Position numbers and translations under genes: made by a program. A stretch of 64,000 nucleotides of DNA, taken from the NCBI RefSeq assembly GCF_030052815.1, contig NW_026614806.1:3005953-3069952 (forward strand), read 5' to 3'. The notes beneath the pieces were generated by a model. The model had not been told where the DNA came from, did no database searches, and saw only the letters and a program-made list of their open reading frames with translations. Position 1 is the stretch's first letter; every line of letters starts with the position of its first letter. The DNA is from Hevea brasiliensis (taxonomy: Eukaryota; Streptophyta; Magnoliopsida; Malpighiales; Euphorbiaceae). Below are positions 17,293 to 64,000 of this stretch, piece by piece.

Positions 17293-17296
<4 letters not shown>

Positions 17297-17508: not shown

Positions 17509-17561
17509 CATTTTCGGTAAAGTCAATGTTCCCCCTCTTCCTAATTTATATATAGTATAGA
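17509..17561 (-). mobile_element. Helitron-like 5' end, minus strand
   Basis: Minus-strand reading starts TCTATACTATATATAAATTA at 17561, then GGAAGAGGGGGAAC and AAAATGCCC. TC plus an AT-rich stretch fits Helitron 5' ends. The same design is seen at 18542 (minus) and 13810 (plus). Confidence 0.5.
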
Positions 17562-23600: not shown

Positions 23601-24337
23601 GATCAATATTGATGGATATTTAAACAACATTTAAATAATAAAATATTGATCCAATATCTTCCTATTATATTAGTGGATAATTAACTAATAATAAATTCGT
23701 TGTAAAGGAATCCGACTCCGATTATATAGTGAATCAAACATAAATGAAAATTTATTATTTTGTTTCTGATTTTGCTTGATTCCAATTCAATACTGTTTTT
23801 GCTTTTAATATGGGAACCAAACGGAACCTAAATTGCTTTGCCCAACAAAATATTTTTTAGTGTTAAATCAATATTCGTTAGAATTATAAATAAACCAAAT
23901 AAATTAATATTTAACAATTTAATGGACTCATTATTATTGAATATTGTTAAATAAATGTTAAATTAGTATCATTAGTTAACCCATTAAAATACATTTGTTT
24001 TAATTCATTAGAATTAAAAAAAATAATTACAATTAATAGAATGATGATTATAATATGAAATTCTCAACTAATAAGAATTAACCACTTCAAAATAATAAGT
24101 TAGATACTGATAAATAATATTTTTTAAATATTATAGTTAATCACAAAAGGTCTTAATTTTTAAAAATTAAATTAAAAAAAATAATTTAAATCATAAATGT
24201 TAAGGTAGTATTATAAATAATAATGACAATTAAAAGATAAAAAAAATTAAATAATAATTAGTATAAAAAAAAATTATTTATGAAAATTGACCTATGATAA
24301 GCTCTTTAAAGAAAGTACTGCATAGTATTTATTTGGG
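20629..24337. repeat. AT-rich mosaic, third block
   Basis: No gene is visible. Words of the left mosaic recur: GAGCTCATATTCTAATAATT near 22175, facing ATATGGACTCATTA near 22146 as a foldback, with GGGCCAATA and TTTTTTATTAGC-type words elsewhere. Positions 23690-23830 carry GGAATCCGACTCCGATT and GGGAACCAAACGGAACC, hAT-like scraps. The block ends abruptly at the satellite junction near 24338. Confidence 0.5.
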
Positions 24338-24597
24338 AATCCTGCCCAAAATTCGTTCGAACTACGCAATCGCCACAGTTGCGTCCCAAATGGACTCCAT
24401 ATTAAATTTCACACCAAAATTACATGATTTGCCTAGTGATCTAAGATCTCACCCCAATCAACCTTTGGCTCCAGATCAGTATGAAACCTTTTCATATGTT
24501 TCCAAACCCTTTATTTTTCCTTTAATATAATTATTTTAGTGTTTTTAAATTGACTGATCATTTTTTTGAGCACTTGCTATTCATGATTTGTTTGGCT
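24338..24597 (+). repeat. Partial unit at left edge (subunit d, 3' part)
   Basis: The array begins inside subunit d with AATCCTGCCCAAAATTCG. To the left is unrelated A/T-rich DNA. About 260 bp of d are present. The break gives the exact left boundary of the satellite. Confidence 0.85.
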
Positions 24598-24855
24598 TTT
24601 GCCATTTCTTTGCCACTAAAATGATCCTAGTGGCTCGGAAAACACAACTAATAAGTTTTCCTTCGGTCAAAAGCAGCTTAAAAATATCCCAAATGTCGCC
24701 TCTATTCATTCCGATTGAATCTTTGGTTCCAAATCCGCATGAAACCCTGTCAAATCTTTCGAACCCTTTATTTCACCTTTAATATCATTATTTCACTGTT
24801 TTTATGCCGTCTGACTCTTATTTTAAACATTTCACTACTCATAACTTCTTTAGCC
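24598..24855 (+). repeat. Subunit a (reference, truncated type)
   Basis: This 258-bp subunit is about 200 bp shorter than the others. After ATATCCCAAAT it jumps straight to TCGCCTC(T)ATTC, missing the box TTTTAGGGGCTG and the CGTCCCAAATGG / ATTAAATTTCA part seen in b, c and d. Confidence 0.9.
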
Positions 24856-25317
24856 TTTGCCATTTCATTACCGCCAAAAAGATCTGTTACCTTGGTACCC
24901 TCGATAGCATATCAATTAACTTTTATTTTTGTCATAAAGTAATCCTTAAATATCCCAAATAACTTGTTTTAGCTTTCTGAAATGTCATCTTCAACCCTGG
25001 TTTTCCTTAAAACTTGTTTTAGGGGCTGTTTTAGCTAACTGACGGCGAACCTGCCCATAATTCTTTCGAACTTTACGATCACCTTAGCTGCGTCCCAAAT
25101 GAACATGATACTAAATTTCAGGTAGAACTTCCATCGGTTGCCCAGCGATCTAAAATCTCGCCTCAATTCGCCCCACTGGAACCTTTAGTTCCAAATCTGT
25201 TCGGAACGGTGCAAAATCATTCCTGTTCCTTGATTTTGCCTTTGATATCATTATTTTGGTGCTTTTAAATTGCCTGATCATGATCTTATGCGCTTGCTAT
25301 ACATAATTTCTTTAGCT
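24856..25317 (+). repeat. Subunit b (reference)
   Basis: This 462-bp full-length subunit begins TTTGCCATTTCATTACC. It has the distinctive words GTACCCTCGATAGCATATC, GAACATGATACTAAATTTC and TTCGGAACGGTGC. Confidence 0.9.
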
Positions 25318-25775
25318 TTTGTCGTTTCTTTGCCGCCAAAATGATCCTAGTGGCCCCAAAAGCACATGCAATGAGTTCTATTTTGGTAAAGAGCAACAAC
25401 CTTAAGATATCCCAAATAACCTTTTTTCAGCTCCTGCAAATGCGATCTTCAAGTCCGAACCTGATTTCCTATAAAAACACGTTTTGGGGGCTGCTTTAGT
25501 GAGCCCCGGTCAAACTTACATGGAATTTGTTCCAACTTTAGAATGACTTTAGCTGCATCCCAAATGGATCCCATATTAAATTTCACGTGAAAAATACATC
25601 ATTTGCCTGGCGAGCCAAAGTCTCGCCTCAATTCGCCCTAATTGAACTTCGGTTCCAAATCCGTATGAAACCTTGTCAAATCTTTCGAATCCTTTACTTT
25701 GGCTTTCATATCATTATTTCACCGTTGTTAAGTTTTCTAACTCTTCTTTTTTACTATTCATAACGTGTTCAGTCT
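25318..25775 (+). repeat. Subunit c (reference)
   Basis: This 458-bp full-length subunit begins TTTGTCGTTTCTTTGCC. It has CAGCTCCTGCAAATGCG, TTTTGGGGGCTGCTTTAGTG, CATGGAATTTGTTCCAAC and CTGGCGAGCCAAAG. Confidence 0.9.
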
Positions 25776-26230
25776 TTTATCGTGTCGTTGCCGCCTAAAT
25801 GATGTGCGACCTTAGTGCCTTCGATAGCACATCAATTAACTTTTATTTTCATAAAAAACGATTAAAATATCCCAAATAACTTGTTTTAGCTTCCAGAAAT
25901 GTGATCTTCATGTCCTAACCCAAGCTTTCCTTAAACCGTGTTTTAGGGGCCGTTTTAGTGAATGCTCATCAATCCTGCCCAAAATTCGTTCGAACTACGC
26001 AATCGCCACCGTTGCGTCCCAAATGGACTCCATATTAAATTTCACACAAAAATTACATGATTTGCATAGAGATCTAAGATCTCACCCCAATCAACCTTTG
26101 GCTCCAGATCAGTATGAAACCTTTTCATATGTTTCCAAACCCTTTATTTTTCCTTTAATATAATTATTTTAGTGTTTTTAAATTGACTGATCATTTTTTT
26201 GAGCGCTTGCTGTTCATGATTTGTTTGGCT
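25776..26230 (+). repeat. Subunit d (reference)
   Basis: This 455-bp full-length subunit begins TTTATCGTGTCGTTGCC. It has CCTTCGATAGCACATC, close to b's GCATATC equivalent, plus AATGCTCATCAATCCTGCCC and CTCCAGATCAGTATGAAACC. Confidence 0.9.
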
Positions 26231-27852
26231 TTTGCCATTTCTTTGCCACTAAAATGATCCTAGTGGCTCGGAAAACACAACTAATAAGTTTTCCTTCGGT
26301 CAAAAGCAGCTTAAAAATATCCCAAATGTCGCCTCTATTCATTCCGATTGAATCTTTGGTTCCAAATCCGCATGAAACCCTGTCAAATCTTTCGAACCCT
26401 TTATTTCACCTTTAATATCATTATTTCACTGTTTTTATGCCGTCTGACTCTTATTTTAAACATTTCACTACTCATAACTTCTTTAGCCTTTGCCATTTCA
26501 TTACCGCCAAAAAGATCTGTTACCTTGGTACCCTCGATAGCATATCAATTAACTTTTATTTTTGTCATAAAGTAATCCTTAAATATCCCAAATAACTTGT
26601 TTTAGCTTTCTGAAATGTCATCTTCAACCCTGGTTTTCCTTAAAACTTGTTTTAGGGGCTGTTTTAGCTAACTGACGGCGAACCTGCCCATAATTCTTTC
26701 GAACTTTACGATCACCTTAGCTGCGTCCCAAATGAACATGATACTAAATTTCAGGTAGAACTTCCATCGGTTGCCCAACGATCTAAAATCTCGCCTCAAT
26801 TCGCCCCACTTAAACCTTTAGTTCCAAATCTGCTCGGAACGTTGCAAAATCATTCATGTTCCTTGATTTTGCCTTTGATATCATTATTTCAGTGCTTTTA
26901 AATTGCCTGATCATGATCTTATGCGCTTGCTATACATAATTTCTTTAGCTTTTGTCGTTTCTTTGCCGCCAAAATGATCCTAGTGGCCCCAAAAGCACAT
27001 GCAATGAGTTCTATTTTGGTCAAGAGCAACAACCTTAAGATATCCCAAATAACCTTTTTTCAGCTCCTGCAAATGCGATCCTCAAGTCCGAACCTGATTT
27101 CCTATAAAAACACGTTTTGGGGGCTGCTTTAGTGAGCCCCGGTCAAACTTACATGGAATTTGTTCCAATTTTAGAATGACTTTAGCTGCATCCCAAATGG
27201 ACCCCATATTAAATTTCACGTCAAAATTACATCATTTTGCCTGGCGAGCCAAAGTCTCGCCTCAATTGAACTTAATTGAACTTCGTATGAAACCTTGTCA
27301 AATCTTTCGAATTCTTTACTTTGGCTTTCATATCATTATTTCACCGTTGTTAAGTTTTCTAACTCTTCCTTTTTACTATTCATAACGTGTTCAGTCTTTT
27401 ATCGTGTCGTTGCCGCCTAAGCGATGTGTGACCTTAGTGCCTTCGATAGCACATCAATTAACTTTTATTTTCATAAAAAACGATTAAAATATCCCAAATA
27501 ACTTGTTTTATCTTCCAGAAATGTGATCTTCATGTCCTAACCCAAGCTTTCCTTAAACCGTGTTTTAGGGGCCGTTTTAGTGAATGCTCATCAATCCTGC
27601 CCAAAATTCGTTCGAACTACGCAATCGCCACCGTTGCGTCCCAAATGGACTCCATATTAAATTTCACACCAAAATTACATGATTTGCCTAGAGATCTAAG
27701 ATCTCACCCCAATCAACCTTTGGCTCCAGATCAGTATGAAACCTTTTCATATGTTTCCAAACCCATTATTTTTCCTTTAATATAATTATTTTAGTGTTTT
27801 TAAATTGACTAATCATTTTTTTGAGCGCTTGCTATTCATGATTTGTTTGGCT
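26231..27852 (+). repeat. HOR unit 2 (1,622 bp)
   Basis: Subunit c is rearranged near 27265: the GCCCC...CGGTTCCAAATC section is replaced by a repeated TTGAACTT, which shortens the unit. The a and early b parts match units 1 and 3. Confidence 0.9.
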
Positions 27853-29486
27853 TTTGCCATTTCTTTGCCACTAAAATGATCCTAGTGGCTTGGAAAACAC
27901 AACTAATAAGTTTTCCTTCGGTCAAAAGCAGCTTTAAAATATCCCAAATGTCGCCTCTATTCATTCCGATTGAATCTTTGGTTCCAAATCCGCATGAAAC
28001 CCTGTCAAATCTTTCGAACCCTTTATTTCACCTTTAATATCATTATTTCACTGTTTTTATGCCGTCTGACTCTTATTTTAAACATTTCACTACTCATAAC
28101 TTCTTTAGCCTTTGCCATTTCATTACCGCCAAAAAGATCTGTTACCTTGGTACCCTCGATAGCATATCAATTAACTTTTATTTTTGTCATAAAGTAATCC
28201 TTAAATATCCCAAATAACTTGTTTTAGCTTTCTGAAATGTCATCTTCAACCCTGGTTTTCCTTAAAACTTATTTTAGGGGCTGTTTTAGCTAACTGACAG
28301 TGAAACTGCCCGTAATTCTTTCGAACTTTACGATCACCTTAGCTGCGTCCCAAATGAACATGATACTAAATTTCAGGTAGAACTTCCATCGGTTGCCCAG
28401 CGATCTAAAATCTGCCTCAATTCGCCCCACTGGAACCTTTAGTTCCAAAACTGTTCGGAACGGTTCAAAATCATTCATGTTCCTTGATTTTGCCTTTGAT
28501 ATCATTATTTCAGTGCTTTTAAATTGCCTTATCATGTTCTTATGCGCTTGCTATACATAATTTCTTTAGCTTTTGCTGTTTCTTTGCCGCCAAAATGATC
28601 CTAGTGGCCCCAAAAGCACATGTAATGAGTTCTATTTTGGTCAAGAGCAACAACCTTAAGATAACCCAAATAACCTTTTTTCAGCTCCTGCAAACACGAT
28701 CCTCAAGTCCGAACCTGATTTCCTATAAAAACACGTTTTGGGGGCTGCTTTAGTGAGCCCCGGTCAAACTTACATGGAATTTGTTCCAATTTTAGAATGA
28801 CTTTAGCTGCATCCCAAATGGACCCCATATTAAATTTCACGTCAAAATTACATCATTTTGCCTGGCGAGCCAAAGTCTCGCCTCAATTCGCCCCAATTGA
28901 ACTTCGGTTCCAAATCCGTATGAAACCTTGTCAAATCTTTCGAATCCTTTACTTTGGCTTTCATATCATTATTTCACCGTTGTTAAGTTTTCTAACTCTT
29001 CCTTTTTACTATTCATAACGTGTTCAGTCTTTTATCGTGTCGTTGCCGCCTAAGCGATGTGCGACCTTAGTGCCTTCGATAGCGCATCAATTAACTTTTA
29101 TTTTCATAAAAAAACGACTAAAATATCCCAAATAACTTGTTTTAGGTTCCAGAAATGTGATCTTCATGTCCTAACCCAAGCTTTCCTTAAATCGTGTTTT
29201 AGGGGCTGTTTTAGTGAATGCTCATCAATCCTGCCCAAAATTCATTCCAACTTTGCAATCGCCACAGTTGCGTCCCAAATGGACTCCATATTAAATTTCA
29301 CGCCAAAATTACATGATTTGCCTAGTGATCTAAGATCTCACCCCAATCAACCTTTGGCTCCAGATCAGTATGAAACCTTTTCATATGTTTCCAAACCCTT
29401 TATTTTTCCTTTAATATAATTATTTTAGTGTTTTTAAATTGACTGATCATTTTTTTGAGCGCTTGCTGTTCATGATTTGTTTGGCT
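27853..29486 (+). repeat. HOR unit 3 (1,634 bp)
   Basis: Subunit b has GACAGTGAAACTGCCCG and a one-base loss (ATCTGCCTC) near 28412, which opens a spurious 81-codon minus-strand frame. An extra A near 29108 in d opens a spurious 120-codon plus-strand frame. Confidence 0.9.
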
Positions 29487-31122
29487 TTTGCCATTTCTTT
29501 GCCACTAAAATGATCCTACTGGCTCGGAAAACACAACTAATAAGTTTTCCTTCGGTCAAAAGCAGCTTTAAAAAATCCCAAATGTCGCCTCTATTCATTC
29601 CGATTGAATCTTTGGTTCCAAATCCGCATGAAACCCTGTCAAATCTTTCGAACCCTTTATTTGACCTTTAATATCACTATTTCACTGTTTTTATGCCGAC
29701 TGACTCTTATTTTAAACGTTTCTTTACTCATAACTTCTTTAGCCTTTGCCACTTCATTACCGCCAAAAAGATCTGTTACCTTGGTACCCTCGATAGCATA
29801 TCAATTAACTTTTATTTTTGTCATAAAGTAATCCTTAAATATCCCAAATAACTTGTTTTAGCTTTCTGAAATGTCATCTTCAACCCTAGTTTTCCTTAAA
29901 ACTTGTTTTAGGGGCTGTTTTAGCTAACTGACGGCGAACCTGCCCATAATTCTTTCGAACTTTACGATCACCTTAGCTGCGTCCCAAATGGACATGATAC
30001 TAAATTTCAGGTGGAACTTCCATCGGTTGCCCAGCGATCTAAAATCTCGCCTCAATTCGCCCCACTGGAACCTTTAGTTCCAAATCTGTTCGGAACGGTG
30101 CAAAATCATTCCTGTTCCTTGATTTTGGCAATGATATCATTACTTCAGTGCTTTTAAATTGCCTGATCATGATCTTATGCGCTTGCTATACATAATTTCT
30201 TTAGCTTTTGTCGTTTCTTTGCCGCCAAAATGATCCTAGTGGCCCCAAAAGCACATGCAATGAGTTCTATTTTGGTCAAGAGCAACAACCTTAAGATATC
30301 CCAAATAACCTTTTCTCAGCTCCTGCAAACGCGATCCTCAAGTCCGAGGACCTGATTTCCTATAAAAACACGTTTTGGGGGCTGCTTTAGTGAGCCCCGG
30401 TCAAACTTACATGGAATTTGTTCCAACTTTAGAATGACTTTAGCTGCATCCCAAATGGACCCCATATTAAATTTCACGTCAAAATTACATCATTTGCCTG
30501 GCGAGCCAAAGTCTCGCCTCAATTCGCCCCAATTGAACTTCGGTTCCAAATCCGTATGAAACCTTGTCAAATCTTTCGAATCCTTTACTTTGGCTTTCAT
30601 ATCATTATTTCACCGTTGTTAAGTTTTCTAACTCTTCTTTTTTACTATTCATAACGTGTTCAGTCTTTTATCGTGCCGTTGCCGCCTAAACGATGTGCGA
30701 CCTTAGTGCCTTTGATAGCACATCAATTAACTTTTATTTTCATAAAAAACGATTAAAATATCCCAAATAACTTGTTTTAGCTTCCAGAAATGTGATCTTC
30801 ATGTCCTAACCCAAGCTTTCCTTAAACCGTGTTTTAGGGGCTGTTTTAGTGAATGCTCATCAATCCTGCCCAAAATTCGTTCCAACTATGCAATCGCCAC
30901 AGTTGCGTCCCAAATGGACTCCATATTAAATTTCACGCCAAAATTACATGATTTGCCTAGTGATCTAAGATCTCACCCCAACCAACCTTTGGCTCCAGAT
31001 CAGTATGAAACCTTTTCATATGTTTTCCAAACCCTTTATTTTTCCTTTAATATAATTATTTTAGTGTTTTTAAATTGACTGATCATTTTTTTGAGCGCTT
31101 CCTGTTCATGATTTGTTTGGCT
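29487..31122 (+). repeat. HOR unit 4 (1,636 bp)
   Basis: This is the longest unit. It is the first of three consecutive units with CCGAGGACCTG instead of CCGAACCTG in c (near 30346). Subunit a has CTTTAAAAAATCCC, shared with unit 6. Confidence 0.9.
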
Positions 31123-32757
31123 TTTGCCATTTCTTTGCCACTAAAATGATCCTACTGGCCCGGAAAACACAAATAATAAGTTTTCCTTCGGTCAAAAGGA
31201 GCTTTAAAATATCCCAAATGTCGCCTCTATTCATTCCGATTGAATCTTTGGTTCCAAATCCGCATGAAACACTGTCAAATCTTTCGAACCCTTTATTTCC
31301 CCTTTAATATCATTATTTCACTGTTTTTATGCCGTCTGACTCTTCTTTTAAACGTTTCACTACTCATAACTTCTTTAGCCTTTGCCATTTCATTACCGCC
31401 TAAAAGATCTGCTACCTTGGTACCCTCGATAGCATATCAATTAACTTTTATTTTTGTCATAAAGTAATCCTTAAATATCCCAAATAACTTGTTTTAGCTT
31501 TCTGAAATGTCATCTTCAACCCTGGTTTTCCTTAAAACTTGTTTTAGGGGCTGTTTTAGCTAAGTGACGGCGAACCTGCCCATAATTCTTTCAAACTTTA
31601 CGATCACCTTAGCTGCGTCCCAAATGAACATGATACTAAATTTCAGGTAGAACTTCCATCGGTTGCCCAGCGATCTAAAATTTCGCCTCAATTCGCCCCA
31701 TTGGAACCTTTAGTTCCAAATCTGCTCGGAACGGTGCAAAATCATTCCTGTTCCTTGATTTTGCCTTTGATATCATTATTTCAGTGCTTTTAAATTGCCT
31801 GATCATGATCTTATGCGCTTGCTATACATAATTTCTTTAGCTTTTGTCGTTTCTTTGCCGCCAAAATGATCCTAGTGGCCCCAAAAGCACATGCAATGAG
31901 TTCTATTTTGGTCAAGAGCAACAACCTTAAGATATCCCAAATAACCTTTTCTCAGCTCCTGCAAACGCGATCCTCAAGTCCGAGGACCTGATTTCCTATA
32001 AAAACACGTTTTGGGGGCTGCTTTAGTGAGCCCCGGTCAAACTTACATGGAATTTGTTCCAACTTTAGAATGACTTTAGCTGCATCCCAAATGGACCCCA
32101 TATTAAATTTCACGTCAAAATTACATCATTTGCCTGGCGAGCCAAAGTCTCGCCTCAATTCGCCCCAATTGAACTTCGGTTCCAAATCCGTATGAAACCT
32201 TGTCAAATCTTTCGAATCCTTTTACTTTGCCTTTCATATCATTATTTCACCGTTGTTAAGTTTCTAACTCTTCTTTTTTACTATTCATAACGTGTTCAGT
32301 CTTTTATCGTGCCGTTGCCGCCTAAACGATGTGCGACCTTAGTGCCTTTGATAGCACATCAATTAACTTTTATTTTCATAAAAAACGATTAAAATATCCC
32401 AAATAACTTGTTTTAGCTTCCAGAAATGTGATCTTCATGTCCTAACCCAAGCTTTCCTTAAACCGTGTTTTAGGGGCTGTTTTAGTGAATGCTCATCAAT
32501 CCTGCCCAAAATTCGTTCCAACTATGCAATCGCCACAGTTGCGTCCCAAATGGACTCCATATTAAATTTCACGCCAAAATTACATGATTTGCCTAGTGAT
32601 CTAAGATCTCACCCCAATCAACCTTTGGCTCCAGATCAGTATGAAACCTTTTCATATGTTTCCAAACCCTTTATTTTTCCTTTAATATAATTATTTTAGT
32701 GTTTTTAAATTGACTGATCATTTTTTTGAGCGCTTGCTGTTCATGATTTGTTTGGCT
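31123..32757 (+). repeat. HOR unit 5 (1,635 bp)
   Basis: It carries CCGAGGACCTG near 31981. Late c reads CCTTTTACTTTGCC, a variant found again in unit 7 but not in unit 6. Subunit a has GGCCCGGAAAACACAAATAA. Confidence 0.9.
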
Positions 32758-34380
32758 TTTGCCATTTCTTTGCCACTAAAATGATCCTACTGGCTCGGAA
32801 AACACAACTAATAAGTTTTCCTTCGGTCAAAAGCAGCTTTAAAAAATCCCAAATGTCGCCTCTATTCATTCCGATTGAATCTTTGGTTCCAAATCCGCAT
32901 GAAACCCTGTCAAATCTTTCGAACCCTTTATTTCACCTTTAATATCATTATTTCACTGTTTTTATGCCGTCTGACTCTTATTTTAAACGTTTCACTACTC
33001 ATAACTTCTTTAGCCTTTGCCATTTCATTACCGCCAAAAAGATCTGTTACCTTGGCACCCTCGATAGCATATCAATTAACTTTTATTTTTGTCATAAAGT
33101 AATCCTTAAATATCCCAAATAACTTGTTTTAGCTTTCTGAAATGTCATCTTCAACCCTGGTTTTCCTTAAAACTTGTTTTAGGGGCTGTTTTAGCTAACT
33201 GACAGCGAACCTGCCCATAATTCTTTCGAACTTTACGATCACCTTAGCTGCGTCCCAAATGAACATGATACTAAATTTCAGGTAGAACTTCCATCGGTTG
33301 CCCAGCGATCTAAAATCTCGCCTCAATTCGCCCCACTGGAACCTTTAGTTCCAAATCTGTTCGGAACGGTGCAAAATCATTCCTGTTCCTTGATTTTGCC
33401 TTTGATATCATTATTTCAGTGCTTTTAAATTGCCTGATCATGATCTTATGCGCTTGCTATACATAATTTCTTTAGCTTTTGTCGTTTCTTTGCCGCCAAA
33501 ATGATCCTAGTGGCCCCAAAAGCACATGCAATGAGTTCTATTTTGGTCAAGAGCAACAACCTTAAGATATCCCAAATAACCTTTTCTCAGCTCCTGCAAA
33601 CGCGATCCTCAAGTCCGAGGACCTGATTTCCTATAAAAACACGTTTTGGGGGCTGCTTTAGTGAGCCCCGGTCAAACTTACATGGAATTTGTTCCAACTT
33701 TAGAATGACTTTAGCTGCATCCCAAATGGACCCCATATTAAATTTCACGTCAAAATTACATCATTTGCCTGGCGAGCCAAAGTCTCGCCTCAATTCGCCC
33801 CAATTGAACTTCGGTTCCAAATCCTTATGAAACCTTGTCAAATCTTTCGAATCTTTTACTTTGGCTTTCATATCATTATTTCACCGCTGTTAAGTTTTCT
33901 AACTCTTCTTTTTTACTATTCATAACGTGTTCAGTCTTTTATCGTGTCGTTGCCGCCTAAACCATGTCCGACCTTAGTGCTTTCGATAGCACATCAATTA
34001 ACTTTTACTTTCATAAAAAACGATTAAAATATCCCAAATAACTTGTTTTAGCTTCCAGAAATGTGATCTTCATGTCCTAACCCAAGCTTTCCTTAAACCG
34101 TGTTTTAGTGAATGCTCATCAATCCTGCCCAAAATTCATTCGAACTACGCAATCGCCACAGTTGCGTCCCAAATGGACTCCATATTAAATTTCACACCAA
34201 AATTACATGATTTGCCTAGAGATCTAAGATCTCACCCCAATCAACCTTTGGCTCCAGATCAGTATGAAACCTTTTCATATGTTTCCAAACACTTTATTTT
34301 TCCTTTAATATAAATATTTTAGTGTTTTTAAATTGACTAATCATTTTTTTGAGCGCTTGCTATTCATGATTTGTTTGGCT
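32758..34380 (+). repeat. HOR unit 6 (1,623 bp)
   Basis: It carries CCGAGGACCTG near 33616. In d, GTGTTTTAGTGAATGC near 34099 shows loss of the GGGG(C)TGTTTTAG box, a deletion between two TTTTAG copies. Confidence 0.9.
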
Positions 34381-36013
34381 TTTGCCATTTCTTTGCCACT
34401 AAAATGATCCTAGTGGCTCCGAAAACACAACTAATAAGTTTTCCTTCGGTCAAAAGCAGCTTTAAAATATCCCAAATGTCGCCTCTATTCATTCCGATTG
34501 AATCTTTGGTTCCAAATCCGCATGAAACCATGTCAAATCTTTCGAACCCTTTATTTGACCTTTAATATCATCATTGCACTGTTTTTATGCCGTCTGACTC
34601 TTATTTTAAACGTTTCACTATTCATAACTTCTTTAGCCTTTGCCATTTCATTACCGCTAAAAGGATCTGTTACCCTGGTGCCCTCGATAGCATATCAATT
34701 AACTTTTATTTTTGTCATAAAGTAATCCTTAAATATCCCAAATAACTTGTTTTAGCTTTCTGAAATGTCATCTTCAACCCTGGTTTTCCTTAAAACTTGT
34801 TTTAGGGGCTGTTTTAGCTAACTGACGGCGAACCTGCCCATAATTCTTTCGAACTTTACGATCACCTTAGCTGCGTCCCAAATGAACATGATACTAAATT
34901 TCAGGTAGAACTTCCATCGGTTGCCCAGCGATCTAAAATCTCGCCTCAATTCGCCCCACTGGAACCTTTAGTTCCAAATCTGTTCGGAACGGTGCAAAAT
35001 CATTCCTGTTCCTTGATTTTGCCTTTGATATCATTATTTCAGTGCTTTTAAATTGCCTGATCATGATCTTATGCGCTTGCTATACAGAATTTCTTTAGCT
35101 TTTGTAGTTTCTTTGCCGCCAAAATGATCCTAGTGGCGCCAAAAGGACATGCAATGAGTTCTATTTTGGTCAAGAGCAACAACCTTAAGATATCCCAAAT
35201 AACCTTTTCTCAGCTCCTGCAAACGCGATCCTCAAGTGCGAACCTGATTTCCTATAAAAACACGTTTTGGGGGCTGCTTTAGTGAGCCCCGGTCAAACTT
35301 ACATGGAATTTGTTCCAACTTTAGAATGACTTTAGCTGCATCCCAAATGGACCCCATATTAAATTTCACGTCAAAATTACATCATTTGCCTGGCGAGCCA
35401 AAGTCTCGCCTCAATTCGTCCCAATTGAACTTCGGTTCCAAATCCGTATGAAACCTTGTCAAATCTTTCGAATCCTTTTACTTTGCCTTTCATATCATTA
35501 TTTCACCGTTGTTAAGTTTCTAACTCTTCTTTTTTACTATTCATAACGTGTTCAGTCTTTTATCGTGCCGTTGCCGCCTAAACGATGTGCAACATTAGTG
35601 CCATCGATAGCACATCAATTAACTTTTAGTTTCATAAAAAACGATTAAAGTATCCCAAATAACTTGTTTTAGCTTCCAGAAATGTGATCTTCATGTCCTA
35701 ACCCAAGCTTTCCTTAAATCGTGTTTTAGGGGCTGTTTTAGTGAATGCTCATAATTCCTGCCCAAAATTCGTTCGAACTACGCAATCGCCACAGTTGCGT
35801 CCCAAATGGACTCCATATTAAATTTCACGCCAAAATTACATGATTTGCCTAGTGATCTAAGATCTCACCCCAATCAACCTTTGGCTCCAGATCAGTATGA
35901 AACCTTTTCATATGTTTCCAAACCCTTTATTTTTCCTTTAATATAATTATTTTAGTGTTTTTAAATTGACTGATCATTTTTTTGAGCGCTTGCTGTTCAT
36001 GATTTGTTTGGCT
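34381..36013 (+). repeat. HOR unit 7 (1,633 bp)
   Basis: It shares the CCTTTTACTTTGCC variant in c (near 35475) with unit 5. Its b contains CGCTAAAAGGATCTG and CCCTGGTGCC, seen again in unit 12. Confidence 0.9.
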
Positions 36014-53812: not shown

Positions 53813-55424
53813 TTTGCCATTTCTTTGCCACTAAAATGATCCTAGTGGCTCGGAAAGCACACCTAATAAGTTTTCCTTCAGTCAAAAGCTATTTTAAAAT
53901 ATCCAAAATGTCGCCTCTATTTATTCCGATTGAATCTTTGGTTCCAAATCCGCATGAAACCCTGTCAAATCTTTCGAACCCTTTATCTTACCTTTAATAT
54001 CATTATGTCACCGTTTTTATGTTGTCTGACTCTTATTTTAAATGTTTCGCTATTCATAACTTCTTTAGTCTTTGCCATTTCATTACCACCAAAAAGATCT
54101 GTTACCTTAGTCCCTCGATAGCACATCATTTAACTTTTTTTTTTGTCATAATGTTATCCTTAAATACCCTAAATAACTTGTTTTAGCTTTCTGAAATGTC
54201 ATCTTCAACCCTGGTTTTCCTTAAAACTTGTTTTAGGGCCTGTTTTAGCTAATTGACAGCGAACCTGCCCATAATTCTTTCGAACTTTACGATCACCTTA
54301 GCTGCGTCCCAAATGAACATGATACTAAATTTCAGGCAGAACTTCCATCGGTTGACCAGCGATCTAAAATCTCCCCTCAATTCGCCCCAGTGGAACCTTT
54401 AGCTCCAAATCTGTTCGGAACGGTGCAAAATCATTCCTGTTCCTTGATTTTGCCTTTGATATCATTATTTTAGTGCTTTTAAATTTTTTTATCATGATTT
54501 TATGCGCTTGCTATACATAATTTCTTTAGTTTTTGTTGTTTCTTTGCCAAAATGATCCTAGTGGCCAAAAGCACATCTAATGAGTTCTATTTTCGTCAAA
54601 AGTAGCAACCTTAAGATATCCCAAATAACCATTTTTCAGCTGCTGCAAACGCGATCTTCAAGTCTAACCTGATATTCTATAAAACACGTTTTGGGGCTGC
54701 TTTAGTGAGCCTCGGTCAAACTTAGATGGAATTTGTTCCAACTTTAGAATGACTTTAGCTGCATCCCAAATGGACCCCATATTAAATTTCACGTCAAAAT
54801 TACATCATTTGCTGGCGAGCCAAAATCTCAATTTGCCCCAATTGAACTTGGTTCCAAATCCGTATGAAACCTTGTCAAATCTTTGAAATCCTTTACTTTG
54901 GCTTTCATATCATTATTTCACCGATTTTAAGTTTTCTAACTCTTATTATTTAATATTCATAACGTGTTCAGTCTTTTATCGTGTCGTTGCCGCCTAAACG
55001 ATTTGAGAACTTAGTGCCTTTGATAGCACATCAATTAACTTTTATTTTCATCAAAAACATCTTTAAATATCCAATAACTTGTTTTAGCTTCCAGAAATGT
55101 GATCTTCATGTCCTAACTCAAGCTTTCCTTAAACCGTGTTTTAGGGGCTTAGTGAATGCTCATCAATCCTGCCCAAAATTCGTTCGAACTGTGCAGTCGC
55201 CACAGTTGCGTCCCAAATAGACACCATATTAAATTTCAAACCAAAATTACATAATTTGCCTAGTGATCTAAGATCTCACCCCAATCAACCTTTGGCTCGA
55301 GATCAGTATGAAACCTTTTCATATGTTTCCAAACCCTTTATTTTACCTTTAATATAATTACTTTAGAGTTTTTAAATTGACTGATCATTTTTTTGAGCGC
55401 TTGCTATTCATGATTTGTTTGGCT
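53813..55424 (+). repeat. HOR unit 19 (1,612 bp)
   Basis: Subunit b has CCTTAGTCCCTCG (two bases lost), shared with unit 20. c shares TCTTTGCCAAAATG with unit 17. Confidence 0.9.
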
Positions 55425-57014
55425 TTTGCCATTTCTTTGCCGCTAAATTGATCCTTTTGGCTCGGAAAGCACACCTAATAAGTTTTCCTTCAGTCAAAAG
55501 CAACTTTAAAATATCCCAAATGTCGCCTCTATTCATTCTGATTGAATCTTTGATTCCAAATCCGCATGAAACCCTGTCAAATCTTTCGAACCCTTTATCT
55601 TACCTTTAATATGATTATTTCACCGTTTTTATGTTGTCTGACTCTTATTTTAAACGTTTCGCTATTCATAACTTCTTTAGTCTTTGCCATTTCATTACCA
55701 CCAAAAAGATATGTTACCTTAGTCCCTCGATAGCATATCAATTAACTTTTATTTTTGTCATAAGGTAGTCCTTAAATTTCCTAAATAACTTGTTTTAGCT
55801 TTCTGAAATGTCATCTTCAACCCTGGTCTTCCTTAAAACTTGTTTTAGGGCCTGTTTTAGCTAATTGACAGCGAACCTGCCCATAATTCTTTCGAACTTT
55901 ACGATCACATTAGCTGCGTCCCAAATGAACATGATACTAAATTTCAGGCAGAACTTCAATCGGTTGCCCAGCGATCTAAAATCTCCCCTCAATTCGCCCC
56001 AATGGAACCTTTAGTTCCAAATCTGTTAGAACGTGCAAAATCAATCCTGTTCCTTGATTTTGCCTTTGATATCATTATTTTAGTGCTTTTAAATTTTCTG
56101 ATCATGATTTTATGCGCTTGCTATACATAATTTCTTTAGTTTTGTCGTTTCTTTGCCGCCAAAATGATCCTAGTGGCCCCAAAAGCACATGTAATGAGTT
56201 CTATTTTGGTCAAAAGCAACAACCTTAAGATATCCCAAATAACCTTTTTCAGCTCCTGCAAACGCGATCTTCAAGTCGAAACCTAATTTCTATAAAAACA
56301 CGTTTTGGGGGCTGCTTTAGTGAGCCCCTGTCAAACTTACATGGAATTTGTTCCAACTTTAGAATGACTTTAGCTGCATCCCAAATGGACCCTATATTAA
56401 ATTTCACGTAAAAATTACATCATTTGCTGGCGAGCCAAAATCTCAATTGCCCCAATTGAACTTCGTTCCAAATCCGTATGAAACCTTGTCAAATCCTTTA
56501 CTTTGGCTTTCATATAATTATTTCACCGTTTCTAAGTTTTCTAACTCTTCCTTTTTACTGTTCATAACGTGTTCAGTCTTTTATCGTGTCGTTGCCGCCT
56601 AAACGATGTGCGACCTTATTGCCTTCGATAGCACATCAATTAACTTTTATTTTCATCAAATAACTTGTTTTAGCTTCCAGAAATGTGAACTTCATGTCCT
56701 AACCCAAGCTTTCCTTAAACCGTGTTTTAGGGGTGGTTTTAGTGAATGCTCATCAATCCTGCCCAAAATTCGTTCGAACTATGAAATCGCCACAGTTGCG
56801 TCCCAAATGGACTCCATATTATATTTCACACCAGAATTACATGATTTGCCTAGTGATCTAAGATCTCACCCCAATCAACCTTTGGCTCTAGATCTGTATG
56901 AAACCTTTTCATATGTTTCCAAACCCTTTATTTTACCTTTAATATAATTATTTTAGTGTTTTTAAATTTACTGATCATTTTTTTTAGCGCTTTCTATTCA
57001 AGATTTGTTTGGCT
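55425..57014 (+). repeat. HOR unit 20 (1,590 bp)
   Basis: d lacks about 22 bp: TTTTCATCAAATAACTTG (near 56653) replaces the longer stretch with AATCTTAAAATATCCC. The same deletion is in units 22 and 23 only. Confidence 0.9.
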
Positions 57015-58617
57015 TTTGCCATTTCTTTGCCAGTAAAATGACCCTAGTGGCTCGGAAAACACAACTAATAAGTTTTCCTTCTGTCAAAAGCAGCTTTAAA
57101 ATATCCCAAATGTCGCCTCTATTCATTCCGATTGAATCTTTGGTTCCAAATCCGCATGAAACCTTGTCAAATCTTTCGAACCCTTTATTTCACCTTTAAT
57201 ATCATTATTTCACTGTTTTTATGTTGTCTAACTCTTATTTTAAACGTTTCACTATTCATAACTTCTTTAGTCTTTGCCATTTCATTGCCACCAAAAAGAT
57301 CTGTTACCTTAGTACCCTCGATAGCATATCAATTAACTTTTATTTTTGTCACAAAGTAATCCTTAAATATCCCAAATAACATGTTTTAGCTCTCTGAAAT
57401 GTCATCTTCAACCTTTGTTTACCTTATAACTTGTTTTAGGGATTGCTTTAGCTAATTGACAGCGAACCTGCCCATAATTCTTTCGAACTTTACGATCACC
57501 TTAGCTGCGTCCCAAATGAACATGATACTAAATTTCAGGTAGAACTTCCATCGGTTTCCCATCGATCTAAAATCTCGCCTCAATTCGCCCCACTGGAACC
57601 TTTAGTTCCAAATCTATTCAGAACAGTGCAAAATCACTCCTGTTCCTTGATTTTGCCTTTGATATCATTATTTCAGTGCTTTTAAATTGTCTGATCATGA
57701 TTTTATGCGCTTGCTATACATAATTTCTTTAGTTTTTGTCGTTTGTTTGCCGCCAAAATGATCCTAGTAGCCCGAAAAGCAAATGTAATGAGTTCTATTT
57801 TGGTCAAAAGCAACAACCTTAAGATATCCCAATTAACCTTTTTTCAGCTTCTGGAAACGCAATCTTCAAGTCCGAACCTGATTTTATATAAAAACACGTT
57901 TTGGGTGCTGCTTTAGTGAGCCACGGTCAAAATTACATGGAATTTGTTCCAACTTTATAATGACTTTAGCTGCATCCCAAATGGACCCCATATTAAATTT
58001 CACGTCAAAATTACATCATTTGCTGGCGAGCCAAAATCTCGCCCCAATTGAACTTCGTTCCAAATCCGTATGAAACCTTGTCAAATCCTTTACTTTGGCT
58101 TTCATATCATTTTAAGTTTCCTAACTCTTCTTTTTTACTATTCATAACGTGTTCAGTCTTTTATCGTGTCGTTACCGCCTAAACGATGTGCGACCTTAGT
58201 GCCTTCGATAGCACAACAATTAGCTTTTATTTTCATCAAAAACAATCTTAAAATATCCCAAATAACTAGTTTTAGCTTCCAGAGATGTGATCGTCATGAC
58301 CCAGCCCAAGCTTTCCTTAAACCGTGTTTTAGGGGCGATTTTAGTGAATGCTCATCAATTCTTGCCAAAATTCGTTCGCACTATGCAATCGTCACAATTG
58401 CGTCCCAAATGGACACCATATTAAATTTCACACCAAAATTACATGATTTGCCTACTGATCTAAGATCTAACCCCAATCAACCTTCGGCTCCAGATCAGTA
58501 TGAAAACTTTTCATATGTTTCCAAACCCTTTATTTTTACCTTTAATATGATTATTTTAGTGTTTTTAAATTGGCTGATCATTTTTTTGAGCGCTTTCTAT
58601 TTAAGATTTGTTTGGCT
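57015..58617 (+). repeat. HOR unit 21 (1,603 bp)
   Basis: Late c has lost TATTTCACCGTT (CATATCATTTTAAG near 58107). a has CCAGTAAAATGACCC, shared with units 22 and 25. d, with its 157-codon spurious frame (58166-58639), resembles unit 24. Confidence 0.9.
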
Positions 58618-60180
58618 TTTGCCATTTCTTTGCCAGTAAAATGACCCTAGTGGCTCGGAAAACACAACTAATAAGTTTTCCTTCTGTCAAAAGCAGCTTT
58701 AAAATATCCCAAATGTCGCCTCTATTCATTCCGATTGAATCTTTGGTTCCAAATCCGCATGAAACCCTGTCAAATCTTTCGAACCCTTTATTTTACCTTT
58801 AATATCATTATTTCACTGTTTTTATGTTGTCTAACTCTTATTTTAAACGTTTCACTATTCATAACTTCTTTAGTCTTTGCCATTTCATTGCCACCAAAAA
58901 GATCTGTTACCTTAGTACCCTCGATAGCATATCAATTAACTTTTATTTTTGTCATAAAGTAATCCTTAAATATGCCAAATAAATTGTTTTAGCTTTCTGA
59001 AATGTCATCTTCAACCCTGGTTTTCCTTAAAACTTGTTTTAGGGGCTGTTTTTGCTAACTGATAGCGAACCTGCCCATAATTCTTTCGAACTATACGATC
59101 ACCTTAGCTGCGTCCCAAATGAACATGATACTAAATTTCAGGTTGAACTTCCATCGGTTGCCCAGCGATCTAAAATCTCGCCTCAATTCACCCCACTGGA
59201 ACCTTTAGTTCTAAATCTGTTCGGAACTGTGCAAAATCATTCCTGTTCCTTGATTTTGCCTTTGATATCATTATTTCAGTGCTTTTAAAGTGTCTGATGA
59301 TGATTTTATGAGCTTGCTATACATACTTTCATTTGTTTTTGTCGTTTCTTTCTCGCCAAAATTATCCTAGTGGCCCGAAAAGCACATGTAATGAGTTCTA
59401 TTTTGGTCGAAAACAACAACCTTAAGATATCCCAAATAACCTTTTTTCAGCTCCTGCAAATGCGATCTTCAAGTCCGAACCTGATTTTCTATAAAACACG
59501 TTTTGGGGGCTGCTTTAGTGAGCCCCGGTCAAACTTACATGGAATTTGTTCCAACTTTAGAATGACTTTAGCTGCATCCCAAATGGACCCCATATTAAAT
59601 TTCACATCACAATTGCATCATTTGCCTGGCGACCCAAAATCTCGCCCCAATTGAACTTCGGCTCCAAATCCGTATGAAACCTTGTCAAATCTTTCAAATC
59701 CTTTACTTTGACTTTCTTATCATTATTTCATCGTTTTTAAGTTTCCTAACTCTTCTTATTTACAAATCATAACGTGTTCAGTCTTTTATCGTGTCGTTGC
59801 CGCCTAAACAATGTGCGACCTTAGTGCCTTGGATAACACATCAAATAACTTTTATTTTCATCAAATAACTTGTTTTAGCTTCCAGAAATGTGATCTTCAT
59901 GTCCTAACCCAAGCTTTCCTTAAACTGTGTTTTAGGGGCGGTTTTAGTGAACGCGCATCAATCCTGCCCAAAATTCGTTCGAACTATACAATCGCCGCTG
60001 TTGCGTCCCAAATGGACCCCATATTAAATTTCACACCAAAATTACATGATTTGCCTAGTGATATAAGATCTCACCCCAATAAACCTTCGGCACCAGATCG
60101 GTATGAAACCTTTTCATGTTTGTGTTTTTAAATTGAATAATCATTTTTTTAAGCGCTTGCTATTCATGATTTGTTTGGCT
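58618..60180 (+). repeat. HOR unit 22 (1,563 bp)
   Basis: d carries the 22-bp deletion of units 20 and 23. It also has a private deletion of about 45 bp near 60115 that removes the TTCCAAACCCTTTATTTT part. Confidence 0.9.
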
Positions 60181-61676
60181 TTTGCCATTTCTTTGCCATT
60201 AAAATGATCCTTGTGGCTCGGAAAACACAACTAATAAGTTTTCCTTCAGTCAAAAGCAGCTTTCAAATATCCCAAATGTCGCCTCTATTCATTCCGTTTG
60301 GATCTTTGGTTCCAAATCAACATGAAACCCTGTCAAATCTTTCGAACCCTTTATTTACCTTTAATATCATTATTTCGCTGTTTTTATGTCGTCTGACTCT
60401 TATTTTAAATATTTTCTTTAGCCTTTGCCGTTTCATTACCACCAAAAAGGTCTATTACCTTTGTTCCCTCGATAGCATATCAATTAACTTTTATTTTTGT
60501 CACTAATTAATCCTTAAATATCCCAAATAACATGTTTTATCTTTCTGAAATGTCATCTTCAACCTTTGTTTTCCTTATAACTTGTTTTAGGGATTGTTTT
60601 AGCTAACTGACAGTGAACCTGCCCATAATTCTTTCGAACTTTACGATCACCTTAGCTGCGTCCCAAATGAATATGATACTAAATTTCAGGTAGAACTTCC
60701 ATCGGTTTCCCAACAATATAAAATCTTGCCTCAATTCGCCCCACTGGAACCTTTAGTTCCAAATCTATTCAGAACAGTGCAAAATCACTCCTGTTCCTTG
60801 ATTTTGCCTTTGATATCATTATTTTAGTGCTTGTAAATTGTATGATCATGATTTTATGCGCTTGCTTATACATAATTTCTTTAGTTTTTGTAGTTTGTTT
60901 GTTGCCAAAATGATCCTAGTGGCCCGAAAAGCAAATGTAATGAGTTCTATTTTGGTCAAAAGCAACAACCTTAAGATATCCCAAATAACCTCTCACAAAA
61001 ACTTTGGAATTTGTTCCAGCTTTAGAATGACATTAGCTGCATCTCAAATGGACCCCATATTAAATTTCACGTCAAAATTACATCATTTGCCTGGCGACCC
61101 AAAATCTCGCCCCTATTGAACTTTGGTTCCAAATTCGTATGAAACATTGTCAAATCCTTTACTTTGGCTTTCGTATCATTATTTCACCGTTTTTAAGTTT
61201 CCTAACTCTTCTTTTTTACTATTCATAACGTGTTCAGTCTTTTATCGTGTCGTTGCCGCCTAAACGATGTGCGACCTTAGTGCCTTCGATAGCACATCAA
61301 TTAACATTTATTTTCATCAAATAACATGTTTTAGCTTCCAGAAATGTGATCTTCATGTCCTAAGCCAAGCTTTCCTTAAACCGTGTTTTAGGTGCGGTTT
61401 TAGTGAACGTGCATCAATCCTGCCCAAAATTCGTTCGAACTATGTAATCGCCACAGTTGTGTCCCAAATGGACCCCATATTTAATTTCACACCAAAATCA
61501 CTTGATTTGCCTAGTGATGTAAGATATCACCCCAATCAACCTTCGGCTCCAGATCGGTATGAAACCTTTTCATGTGTTTCCAAACCCTTTATTTTTACCT
61601 TTAATATAATTGTTTTAGTGTTTTTAAATTGAATAACCATTTTTTTAAGCGCTTGCTATTCATGATTTGTTTGGCT
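60181..61676 (+). repeat. HOR unit 23 (1,496 bp, shortest)
   Basis: c has lost roughly 85 bp near 60990, replaced by the short filler TCTCACAAAAACTTT. The end of a is shortened (AAATATTTTCTTTAGCC). d carries the 22-bp deletion. The b/c junction matches unit 15. Confidence 0.9.
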
Positions 61677-63286
61677 TTTGCCATTTCTTTGCCATTAAAA
61701 TGATCCTTGTGGCTCGGAAAACACAACTAATAAGTTTTCCTTCAGTCAAAAGCAGCTTTAAAATATCCCAAATGTCGCCTCTATTCATTCCGATTGGATC
61801 TTTGGTTCCAAATCAGCATGAAACCCTGTCAAATCTTTCGAACCTTTATTTTACCTTTAATATCATTATTTCACTGCTTTTATGTCGTCGACTCTTATTT
61901 TAAACGTTTCACTATTCATAACTTCTTTAGCCTTTGCCATTTCATTACCAAAAAGTTCTATTACCTTGGTACCCTCGATAGCATATCAATTAACTTTTAT
62001 TTTTGTCACAAAGTAATCCTTAAATATCCCAAATAACATGTTTTAGCTTTCTGAAATGTCATCTTCAACCTTTGTTTTCCTTATAACTTGTTTTAGGGAT
62101 TGTTTTAGCTAACTGACAACGAACCTGCCCATAATTGTTTGGAACTTTACGATCACCTTAGCTGCGTCCCAAATGAACATGATACTAAATTTCAGGTAGA
62201 ACTTCCATCGGTTTCCCAGCGATCTAAAATCTCGCCTCAATTCGCCCCACTGGAACCTTTAGTTCCAAATCTATTCAGAACAGTGCAAAATCACTCCTGT
62301 TCCATGATTTTGCCTTTGATATCATTGTTTTAGTGCTTTTAAATTGTCTGATCATGATTTTATGCGCTTGCTATACATAATTTCTTTAGTTTTTGTCGTT
62401 TCTTTGCCGCCAAAATGATGCTAGTGGCCCGAAAAGCACATGTAATGAGTTCTATTTTGGTCAAAAGCAACAACCTTAAGATATCCCAAATAATCTTTTT
62501 TCAGCTCCTGCAAACGCAATCTTCAAGTCCGAACTTGATTTTCTATAAAACACGTTTTGGGGGCTGCTTTAGTGAGCCCGGTCAAACTTGCATGGAATTT
62601 GTTCCAACTGTAGAATGACATTAGCTGCATCTCAAATGGACCCCATATTAAATTTCACGTCAAAATTACATCATTTGCCTTCCGAGCCAAAATCTCGCCC
62701 CTATTGAACTTCGGTTCCACATCCGTATGAAACCTTGTCAAATCCTTTACTTTGGCTTTCGTATCATTATTTCACCGTTTTTAAGTTTCCTAACTCTACT
62801 TTTTTATTATTCATAACGTGTTCAGTCTTTTATCGTGTCGTTGCCGCCTAAACGATGTGCCACCTTAGTGCCTTCGATAGCACATCAATTAACTTTTATT
62901 TTCATCAAAAATAATCTTAAAATATCCCAAATAACTTGTTTTAGCTTCCAGAAGTGTGATCTTCATGTCCTAACCCAAGCTTTCCTTAAACCGTGTTTTA
63001 GGGGCGATTTTAGTGAATGCTCATCAATCCTTCCCAAAATACGTTCGCACTATGCAATCGTCACAATTGCGTCCCAAATGGACTCCATATTAAATTTCGC
63101 ACCAAAATTACATGATTTGCCTAGTGATCTAAGATCTCACCCCAATCAACCTTCGGCTCCAGATCAGTATGAAAACTTTTCATATGTTTCCAAACCCTTT
63201 ATTTTTACCTTTAATATGATTATTTTAGTGTTTTTAAATTGGCTGATCATTTTTTTGAGCGCTTTCTATTTAAGATTTGTTTGGCT
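61677..63286 (+). repeat. HOR unit 24 (1,610 bp)
   Basis: Late c and d closely match unit 8 over about 480 bp. The d-to-a passage matches that between units 21 and 22. c has TTTGCCTTCCGAGCC as a private variant. Confidence 0.9.
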
Positions 63287-64000
63287 TTTGCCATTTCTTT
63301 GCCAGTAAAATGACCCTAGTGGCTCGGAAAACACAACTAATAAGTTTTCCTTCTGTCAAAAGCAGCTTTAAAATATCCCAAATGTCGCCTCTATTCATTC
63401 CGATTGAATCTTTGGTTCCAAATCCGCATGAAACCCTGTCAAATCTTTCGAACCCTTTATTTTACCTTTAATATCATTGTTTCACTATTTTTATGTTGTC
63501 TGACTCTTATTTTCAACGTTTCACTATTCATAACTTCTTTAGTCTTTGCCATTTCATTACCACCAAAAAGATCTGTTACCTTAGTACCCTCGATAGCACA
63601 TCAATTAACTTTTATTTTTGTCACAAAGTAATCCTTAAATATCACAAATAACTTGTTTTAGCTCTTTGAAATGTCATCTTCAACCCTGGTTTTCCTTAAA
63701 AATTGTTTTAGGGGCTGTTTTAGCTAATCGACAGAACCTGCACATAATTGTTTCGAACTTTACGATCACCTTAGCTGCGTCCCAAATGAACATGATACTA
63801 AATTTCAGGTAGAACTTCCATCGGTTGCCCAGCGATCTAAAATCTTGCCTTAATTCGCCCCACTGGAACCTTTAGTTCCAAATATGTTCGGAACGGTGCA
63901 AAATCATTGCTGTTCCTTGATTTTGCCTTTCATATCATCATTTCAGTGCTTTTAAATTGTTTGATCATGATTTTATGCGCTCGCTATACAAAATTTGTTT
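63287..64000 (+). repeat. HOR unit 25, cut by window end
   Basis: Subunit a (63287-63544) is complete and b is cut just before c would start. b shares the unusual variant set of unit 13 (AAATATCACAAATAAC, GCTCTTTGAAATG, CTTAAAAATTG). Confidence 0.9.

What the first reader, a model, noticed from the sequence alone, without database searches (positions are those of the whole stretch)
24338..64000. Long satellite with a four-subunit higher-order repeat of about 1.6 kb
At least 39.6 kb of head-to-tail units is seen. Each unit is four related subunits that align box by box and are more like the same subunit in other units than like their neighbours. Plant satellites are commonly described with monomers of roughly 150-180 bp or 300-400 bp. 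A regular 4-mer of ~460-bp subunits in one unbroken stretch is a good candidate for a major heterochromatin component of this genome.
Basis: partly seen in the sequence, partly recalled or inferred. Interest (0 to 1): 0.75.

Follow-up and report, generated by a model that had tools for sequence, protein, structure and literature searches.

The report
Plant four-part satellite repeat
This is a real stretch of plant satellite DNA built from a repeating block of about 1.6 thousand bases made of four related parts; wherever it was found on the long pieces of this genome it usually sits in one short region, so it probably marks centromere regions, but it is an ordinary kind of repeat and looks too scarce in the assembly to be a major part of the genome.

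Summary
From 24,338 to 64,000 the window is 24 complete units and one cut unit of a head-to-tail higher-order repeat (HOR; consensus 1,626 bp); the contig ends inside the array 4.8 kb further on. Each unit holds four subunits: A 359, B 349, C 463, D 455 bp. The same subunit in different units is 93.5-95% alike; different subunits are 67.5-78% alike. A groups with C and B with D, so the unit looks like a doubled dimer that lost about 200 bp across A/B.

CG and CHG sites carry excess transitions (plant-type methylation); linkage between variants decays within the unit (exchange).

The HOR tag was counted 258 times in 1.88 Gb: about 0.02% of the assembly, a lower bound, not a major component. Listed places fall in one short interval on nine of ten long contigs and two on C14. 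Contigs carry their own forms: A-shortB-C-D on C4, A-B-D on C14.

The clusters coincide with a caulimovirid-like element: 38 of 55 listed tags on eight contigs lie within 250 kb.

Best reading: a centromere-region HOR satellite, a new member of a known kind. CENH3 was not testable.

The parts
24338..64000 (+). Satellite array: 24 complete units and one cut unit of a 1.62-kb four-subunit HOR; continues 4.8 kb to the contig end
24338..24695 (+). Subunit A of unit 1 (consensus 359 bp; lacks the last part of the ~460-bp monomer)
24696..25044 (+). Subunit B of unit 1 (consensus 349 bp; lacks the first ~110 bp of the monomer)
25045..25507 (+). Subunit C of unit 1 (463 bp, full monomer)
25508..25969 (+). 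Subunit D of unit 1 (consensus 455 bp, full monomer)
24338..35754 (+). Units 1-7: most homogeneous block (97.4% mean pairwise), directly at the array edge
59959..61414 (+). Unit 23, the shortest complete unit: 1,456 bp with several deletions
1..24337 (.). AT-rich flank (19% GC) with CG and CWG depletion; no satellite similarity at the edge; related DNA lies elsewhere on the same contig

Best explanation
A plant satellite family of the centromere region. A ~460-bp monomer first formed a two-type dimer. The dimer doubled to A-B-C-D, about 200 bp were lost across the A/B boundary, and the resulting 1.62-kb unit became the unit of amplification. It then spread to a region on each of many chromosomes. 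Since then unequal exchange, gene conversion or break-induced copying have kept copies within one cluster alike (shown by linkage decay and by same-contig nearest neighbours; which of the three is inferred only) and have fixed local forms: a B deletion on C4, loss of C on C14, a shortened D on C1. The DNA behaves as densely CG/CHG-methylated heterochromatin (inferred from mutation context). Its likely role is structural: repetitive substrate of the centromere or pericentromere, rather than any coded product.
For: HOR structure and counts. AC|BD split of the subunit tree 99.3/100; site patterns AC|BD 16, AB|CD 4, AD|BC 2, the rest uninformative. Exchange: mean r2 falls from 0.098 to 0.056 with distance; near-minus-far difference 0.030 against a maximum of 0.013 in 200 permutations. 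Methylation signature: transitions at 43 of 84 CHG and 49 of 94 CG sites against 85 of 419 CHH sites; CHG against CHH transversions p 0.14. Listed places fall in one interval on C1, C2, C3, C4, C5, C9, C11, C13 and C18, two on C14. Local homogenisation: nearest neighbour on the same contig for 46 of 56 A and 44 of 52 D copies, against means of 7.4 and 7.2 and maxima of 19 and 17 in 1,000 label shuffles (overlapping locus L004 removed). Local HOR forms. No Pfam match at E 0.1 in the six frames of two units; no Rfam match at gathering score and no tRNA in the window.
Against: No CENH3, FISH, methylome or read-depth data. C14 has two places. The satellite is scarce for a centromere-wide satellite; C6, C7, C8, C10, C12, C16 and C17 (long contigs, judged by tag positions) show none among the listed places, of which only the exact D tag was listed in full. 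The window's own array is not homogenised overall (94.1% within for A, as between chromosomes; C1, C9 and C18 are similar at 93.4-94.8%). Transversions per cell are also raised at CG and CHG, 1.5-1.6-fold, though less than transitions at 3.5-4.2-fold. No CENP-B-box-like motif above chance and no 10-bp WW periodicity above shuffles (p 0.17). The window lies on an unplaced 3.07-Mb contig.
Confidence: 0.7

Rival explanations
1. Pericentromeric or interstitial heterochromatic satellite that lies beside, not in, the CENH3 domain. (This overlaps the best explanation, which says centromere region, so the confidences are not exclusive.)
For: Low copy number; clusters broken by retroelements and caulimovirid-like DNA; in poplars and willows many tandem arrays near centromeres carry little CENH3 (passages of PMC12046899).
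Against: Listed places fall in one tight interval on nine of ten long contigs.
Confidence: 0.4
2. The array or its sharp left edge is an assembly artefact, a satellite contig misjoined to AT-rich DNA.
For: The HOR reaches the edge at full homogeneity with no eroded monomers; the contig ends in the array; non-satellite GC is 15-23% in the C240 stretches against 32-39% in the 11 ten-kb stretches with non-satellite DNA from C1, C2, C3, C9, C11 and C14.
Against: No two units identical; the same HOR occurs on ten other long contigs; a second short array on C240 (2.8955-2.9000 Mb, reverse strand) also lies in AT-rich DNA.
Confidence: 0.1
3. The repeat is an internal or terminal part of a transposable element that was tandemly amplified.
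For: Retroelements abut it on several contigs; on C2 two breaks fall at the same unit position, about 478.
Against: No Pfam match in six frames; the other breaks fall at different unit positions; no satellite-like stretch in the 24-kb flank beyond short weak A/T matches.
Confidence: 0.07

Closest known systems
Higher-order repeats with shortened monomers in switchgrass (Melters et al. 2013, PMC4053949; passages seen)
   Same: A plant HOR that mixes complete and deleted versions of one monomer (792-bp and 1,131-bp units).
   Different: Monomer 175 bp there, ~460 bp here; here the shortening joins two subunits and the unit looks like a doubled dimer.
Alpha satellite HORs of humans (PMC8997354; passages seen)
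   Same: Two monomer types in alternation; monomers 50-70% alike within a unit while copies of a unit are nearly identical.
   Different: 171-bp monomers (PMC12046899 passage), CENP-B box, disordered monomers at array edges; none of these found here.
Centromeric tandem arrays of poplar and willow (PMC12046899; passages seen)
   Same: HORs with higher similarity within than between chromosomes; arrays on only some chromosomes; mixed with retroelements.
   Different: [quoted passage not shown] no relation in sequence was tested.
Forsythia centromeric satellites CentFs356/365/530/732 (PMC11374533; passages seen)
   Same: Plant centromere satellites of several hundred bp with phased CENH3 nucleosomes.
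   Different: The words HOR and higher-order do not occur in its main text.

Membership tests
Higher-order-repeat satellite | Head-to-tail array of multi-monomer units | tested here: met
Higher-order-repeat satellite | Same-position monomers more alike between units than different monomers within a unit | tested here: met
   93.5-95.0% against 67.5-78.2%
Higher-order-repeat satellite | Monomers cluster by position in a tree | tested here: met
   A 99.8/100, B 99.5/100, C 99.4/100, D 95.7/100
Plant satellite in CG/CHG-methylated chromatin | Transition excess at CG and CHG over CHH | tested here: met
   an indirect test, no methylome
Centromeric satellite | One region per chromosome | tested here: inconclusive
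   Among listed places nine of ten satellite-bearing long contigs have one interval and C14 two; other long contigs show none
Centromeric satellite | Bound by CENH3 | not testable with these tools
   no ChIP data
Alpha-like satellite with CENP-B box | CENP-B box (motif recalled) | tested here: not met
   one site with 2 mismatches in the consensus, 1.87 expected in shuffles
Major genome component | High copy number | tested here: not met
   258 HOR tags in 1.88 Gb; lower bound, no read depth

The most novel reading that the evidence does not exclude
In this plant the centromere domain is marked jointly by a rare chromosome-specific HOR satellite and by a caulimovirid-like (endogenous pararetrovirus-type) element that accumulates there in place of, or along with, the usual centromeric retrotransposons. 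Contigs without listed satellite but with tag clusters (C7 at 62.67-62.85, C16 at 3.80-4.00 and C8 at 70.24-70.32 Mb) would then hold centromeres marked by the element alone.
Probability: 0.25. Interest if true: 0.7.

Novelty: new member of a known kind. Interest (0 to 1): 0.42.

Why it matters
It gives one coherent series of HOR evolution in a plant: monomer, dimer, doubled dimer with a fused junction, spread, then loss or shortening of subunits chromosome by chromosome. The co-location with a caulimovirid-like element offers a direct test of whether viral elements without an integrase of their own (recalled trait of the family) can accumulate in plant centromeres.

Tried and rejected
Looked for the satellite in viral and prokaryotic collections (one 25-base exact pattern each: none) and six 20-22-base strings in the paper library (none). 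Text searches for a described ~460-bp or 1.6-kb plant HOR showed none that I recognised in the listed titles and abstract openings (9, 7, 20 of 84, 1 and 0 papers). A lead from recall, that repeats in the AT-rich flank look like those of Malvaceae, was not tested; okra satellites (PMC10809672, abstract and section 5) have monomers of 43-202 bp and do not fit. A holoparasitic plant source was considered for the 19% GC (listings only) and set aside: DNA beside satellites on C1, C2, C3, C9, C11 and C14 is 32-39% GC. Internal sub-repeats of the monomer: none above 40 shuffles. Rfam and tRNA: none. Similarity of the array to its flank: only short weak matches. One paper search for endogenous pararetroviruses with satellite and centromere listed one paper, a small-RNA review seen as a listing only.

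Results against my reading: A-C and A-D are equal in ungapped local identity (76.6 and 76.7%), so the A+C pairing rests on the tree, the site patterns and the multiple alignment. The window array is as diverse within as between chromosomes. The first printout of tree supports had labels shifted by re-rooting; the first nearest-neighbour count held two overlapping C18 loci. Both were redone.

Not answered: where else the AT-rich flank lies, a LEAFY family check for a land plant, and the distribution of the neighbouring Ty3-type element.
Full report
What is there. From 24,338 to the end of the window it is one head-to-tail array, 24 complete units of 1,456-1,636 bp and a cut unit of 976 bp. The contig runs only 4,801 bp further and that stretch is satellite throughout, so the right end of the array is an assembly end. 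Pairwise identity over all 300 pairs of units is 90.9-98.1%, and no two are identical.

The four subunits. Self-comparison of the consensus (1,626 bp) gives A 1-359, B 360-708, C 709-1171 and D 1172-1626. The six pairs align far above 60 letter shuffles each (scores 204-380, shuffle maximum 58). Mean identities are 93.5-95.0% for the same subunit in different units and 67.5-78.2% for different subunits. A and B lie 258 bp apart in register instead of about 460, so roughly 200 bp are missing across their junction (inference). A simple pattern for the junction matches 23 of the 25 units (units 11 and 19 were not matched), and B is 334-351 bp long in all 25.

Order of events. In a tree of 98 subunits (25 A, 25 B, 24 C, 24 D; C and D of the cut unit left out; 246 core columns) the AC|BD split has support 99.3/100, and A, B, C and D are each monophyletic (99.8/100, 99.5/100, 99.4/100, 95.7/100) (the supports printed were displaced by re-rooting). 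Four-subunit site patterns favour AC|BD 16 to 4 to 2, with 134 invariant and 72 other columns. The simplest history is monomer, dimer, doubled dimer, fusion deletion, then amplification of the 1.62-kb unit. Local identities separate B-D clearly but not A-C from A-D.

Exchange between units. Among 131 informative two-state sites in the 24 complete units, linkage falls with distance inside the unit (mean r2 0.098 within 25 bp, 0.056 beyond 500 bp), and the share of pairs with all four combinations rises from 0.146 to 0.270. The near-far difference of 0.030 exceeds all 200 permutations of positions (maximum 0.013). Recurrent mutation alone does not predict the distance effect. Variants carried by two to six units are shared by units lying closer together than expected (mean gap 4.4 units, null 7.0).

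A gradient. Mean pairwise identity in blocks of seven units falls from 97.4% at the left edge to 92.9% at the right. The local-identity trend has rho -0.76, p about 0.001 over 2,000 reorderings, and remains without units 23 and 25 (rho -0.76, p 0.0015). The unit therefore reaches the array edge in its most homogeneous form, unlike human arrays, whose edges are disordered (PMC8997354, passages). A recent expansion at the edge, a breakpoint through a once larger array, or a misjoin would each do this.

Methylation signature. Against the consensus, transitions are seen at 49 of 94 CG sites, 43 of 84 CHG sites and 85 of 419 CHH sites; CHG against CHH p = 3e-8 for transitions and 0.14 for transversions. 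Counted by cells, transversions too are somewhat higher at CG and CHG (2.5-2.6% against 1.65%), transitions far more (4.5-5.4% against 1.3%). The flank shows the same in its composition: CG 0.53 of expectation, CWG 0.65 while GWC is 1.17. CHG maintenance methylation is a plant trait (established knowledge), so this supports a plant nuclear source and a heterochromatic state without a methylome.

Genome-wide. The A/B junction (21 bases, up to 2 mismatches) occurs 258 times, 0 in the reversed control (100 places listed). A B/D box (24 bases, up to 3 mismatches) occurs 492 times, control 0 (100 listed). A D tag of 42 bases occurs exactly 86 times, control 0 (all 86 listed). The listed places fall, in Mb, at C1 56.49-56.50, C2 58.25-58.34, C3 44.15, C4 62.07-62.12, C5 23.05, C9 80.09, C11 66.46-66.73, C13 40.78-40.86, C14 31.18 and 58.53-58.61, and C18 21.46-22.09, besides C240 and C637. 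Nine of these ten long contigs are 52.7-128.6 Mb; the length of C5 was not shown. Nine of ten thus carry one interval among the listed places. The total is about 0.4 Mb, some 0.02% of the assembly, a lower bound.

Contig-specific forms. In the stretches fetched, C13, C11, C2 and C9 carry A-B-C-D. C4 carries A, a B cut to 137-145 bp, C and D (period 1.42-1.43 kb). C14 at 58.59 Mb carries A-B-D (period 1,163-1,164 bp), while the remnant at 31.18 Mb on the same contig still has A-B-C-D. C1 carries a D shortened to about 390 bp (period about 1,561 bp). For complete A and D copies from the fetched stretches (every third copy taken from the window), the nearest neighbour is on the same contig for 46 of 56 A and 44 of 52 D, against shuffled means of 7.4 and 7.2 and maxima of 19 and 17 (the first count, 50 of 59 and 47 of 55, held an overlapping locus). 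Within-contig A identity is 98.9% on C13, 99.4% on C14 and 98.7% on C4, but 94.1% in the window array, no more than between chromosomes; C1, C9 and C18 are similar (94.1, 94.8, 93.4%). The window array is thus older or less turned over than the C4, C13 and C14 arrays. Chromosome-wise homogenisation is in print for poplar (PMC12046899, passages).

Neighbours. Beside the satellite on C1, C2, C3, C9, C11 and C14 lie pieces of a mutually similar element. Among its open frames, scanned piece by piece, are Pfam matches to reverse transcriptase (C2, C9, C11), cauliflower mosaic virus peptidase A3 (C3, E 8.5e-05, with retroviral protease next at 1.7e-04), a caulimovirus coat domain (C2, E 1.3e-06) and a zinc knuckle (C14). 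One reverse transcriptase frame finds 1,002 proteins; among the 120 listed, rows named from plants are eudicots, four are called 'enzymatic polyprotein', and two are labelled prokaryotic, which I take for contamination. The caulimovirid label rests on these matches and not on a tree. C1 and C2 also carry Ty3-type reverse transcriptase or gag, with an integrase match just below its cut-off (31.6 against 32.6 bits). A 27-base tag of the first element occurs 134 times (up to 2 mismatches, control 0; 100 listed). Of 55 listed places on eight satellite-bearing contigs, 38 lie within 250 kb of satellite, with 0.34 expected under uniformity (left out there for want of lengths at the time: C5, 0 of 1 near, and C18, 1 of 1 near). 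The other 43 listed places lie on contigs where no satellite was listed. The tag was picked from satellite-side stretches and five of the 38 are in those stretches (33 of 50 without them). Heterochromatin is never uniform, and a control element could not be mapped because the search machine did not answer. The co-location is strong; its meaning is open.

The AT-rich flank. The 24 kb left of the array are 19% GC and free of satellite. Related DNA (7.4 kb of summed BLAST pieces at 82%) lies on the same contig at 2.905-2.915 Mb, about 5 kb beyond a second short array of two complete units and one cut unit in the opposite orientation. In the 11 ten-kb stretches with non-satellite DNA from C1, C2, C3, C9, C11 and C14 the latter is 32-39% GC; small remnants on C18 are 26-30%. 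C240 is therefore unusual, and its chromosome is unknown.

Precedent. HORs are widespread in plants and animals, and HORs containing shortened monomers are in print for switchgrass (PMC4053949, passages). HORs of unequal subunits are reported, with caution, for Vaccinium (PMC7290377, passages). Hence: a new member of a known kind.

Verdict. Observation confirmed, interpretation partly supported. Likely a centromere-region satellite; the strict centromere claim awaits CENH3 data. Interest 0.42, mostly for the series of contig-specific forms and the co-located caulimovirid-like element.

Noticed in passing
L022, L026, L027, L029, L030, L031, L033 (contigs C2, C2, C1, C3, C9, C14, C11): Caulimovirid-like element pieces lie beside the satellite; a 27-base tag is concentrated at the satellite intervals (38 of 55 listed places on eight contigs within 250 kb).
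   Followed up: partly
G000 C7 62.67-62.85, C16 3.80-4.00, C8 70.24-70.32 Mb: Clusters of the same tag (7, 7 and 2 listed places) on long contigs with no listed satellite; candidate satellite-free centromere domains.
   Followed up: no
G000 C116 105,585-134,880: Five exact element tags spaced about 7.3 kb apart on one strand: the caulimovirid-like element itself may be in tandem there.
   Followed up: no
L023 1017-4663 and L024 before 6574 (C2): Two places where foreign DNA breaks the satellite at the same unit position (about 478-486), as if a unit carrying an insertion had been copied.
   Followed up: no
window 1-24337 and L020 (C240:2905000-2914999): AT-rich DNA (19-20% GC) with related DNA about 100 kb away on the same contig at 82% identity, about 5 kb beyond a second, reverse-oriented short array.
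   Followed up: partly
window 11571-11711 (and to about 12,000): Decayed fragment with a weak CAF1-family match below the curated cut-off (21.9 against 24.2 bits); by recall it reads like plant PARN.
   Followed up: partly
window 9191-9980, 22302-22640, 2808-3276: Self-complementary AT-rich stretches (65-71% over alignments of 354-818 columns), like decayed fold-back elements.
   Followed up: no
window 16628-18811: Local AT-rich duplications (up to 81% over 538 bp) with an AT dinucleotide tract.
   Followed up: no
window 24338-64000: Constant strand asymmetry: 58-60% pyrimidine on the + strand along the array, against 47-51% in the flank (2-kb steps).
   Followed up: no
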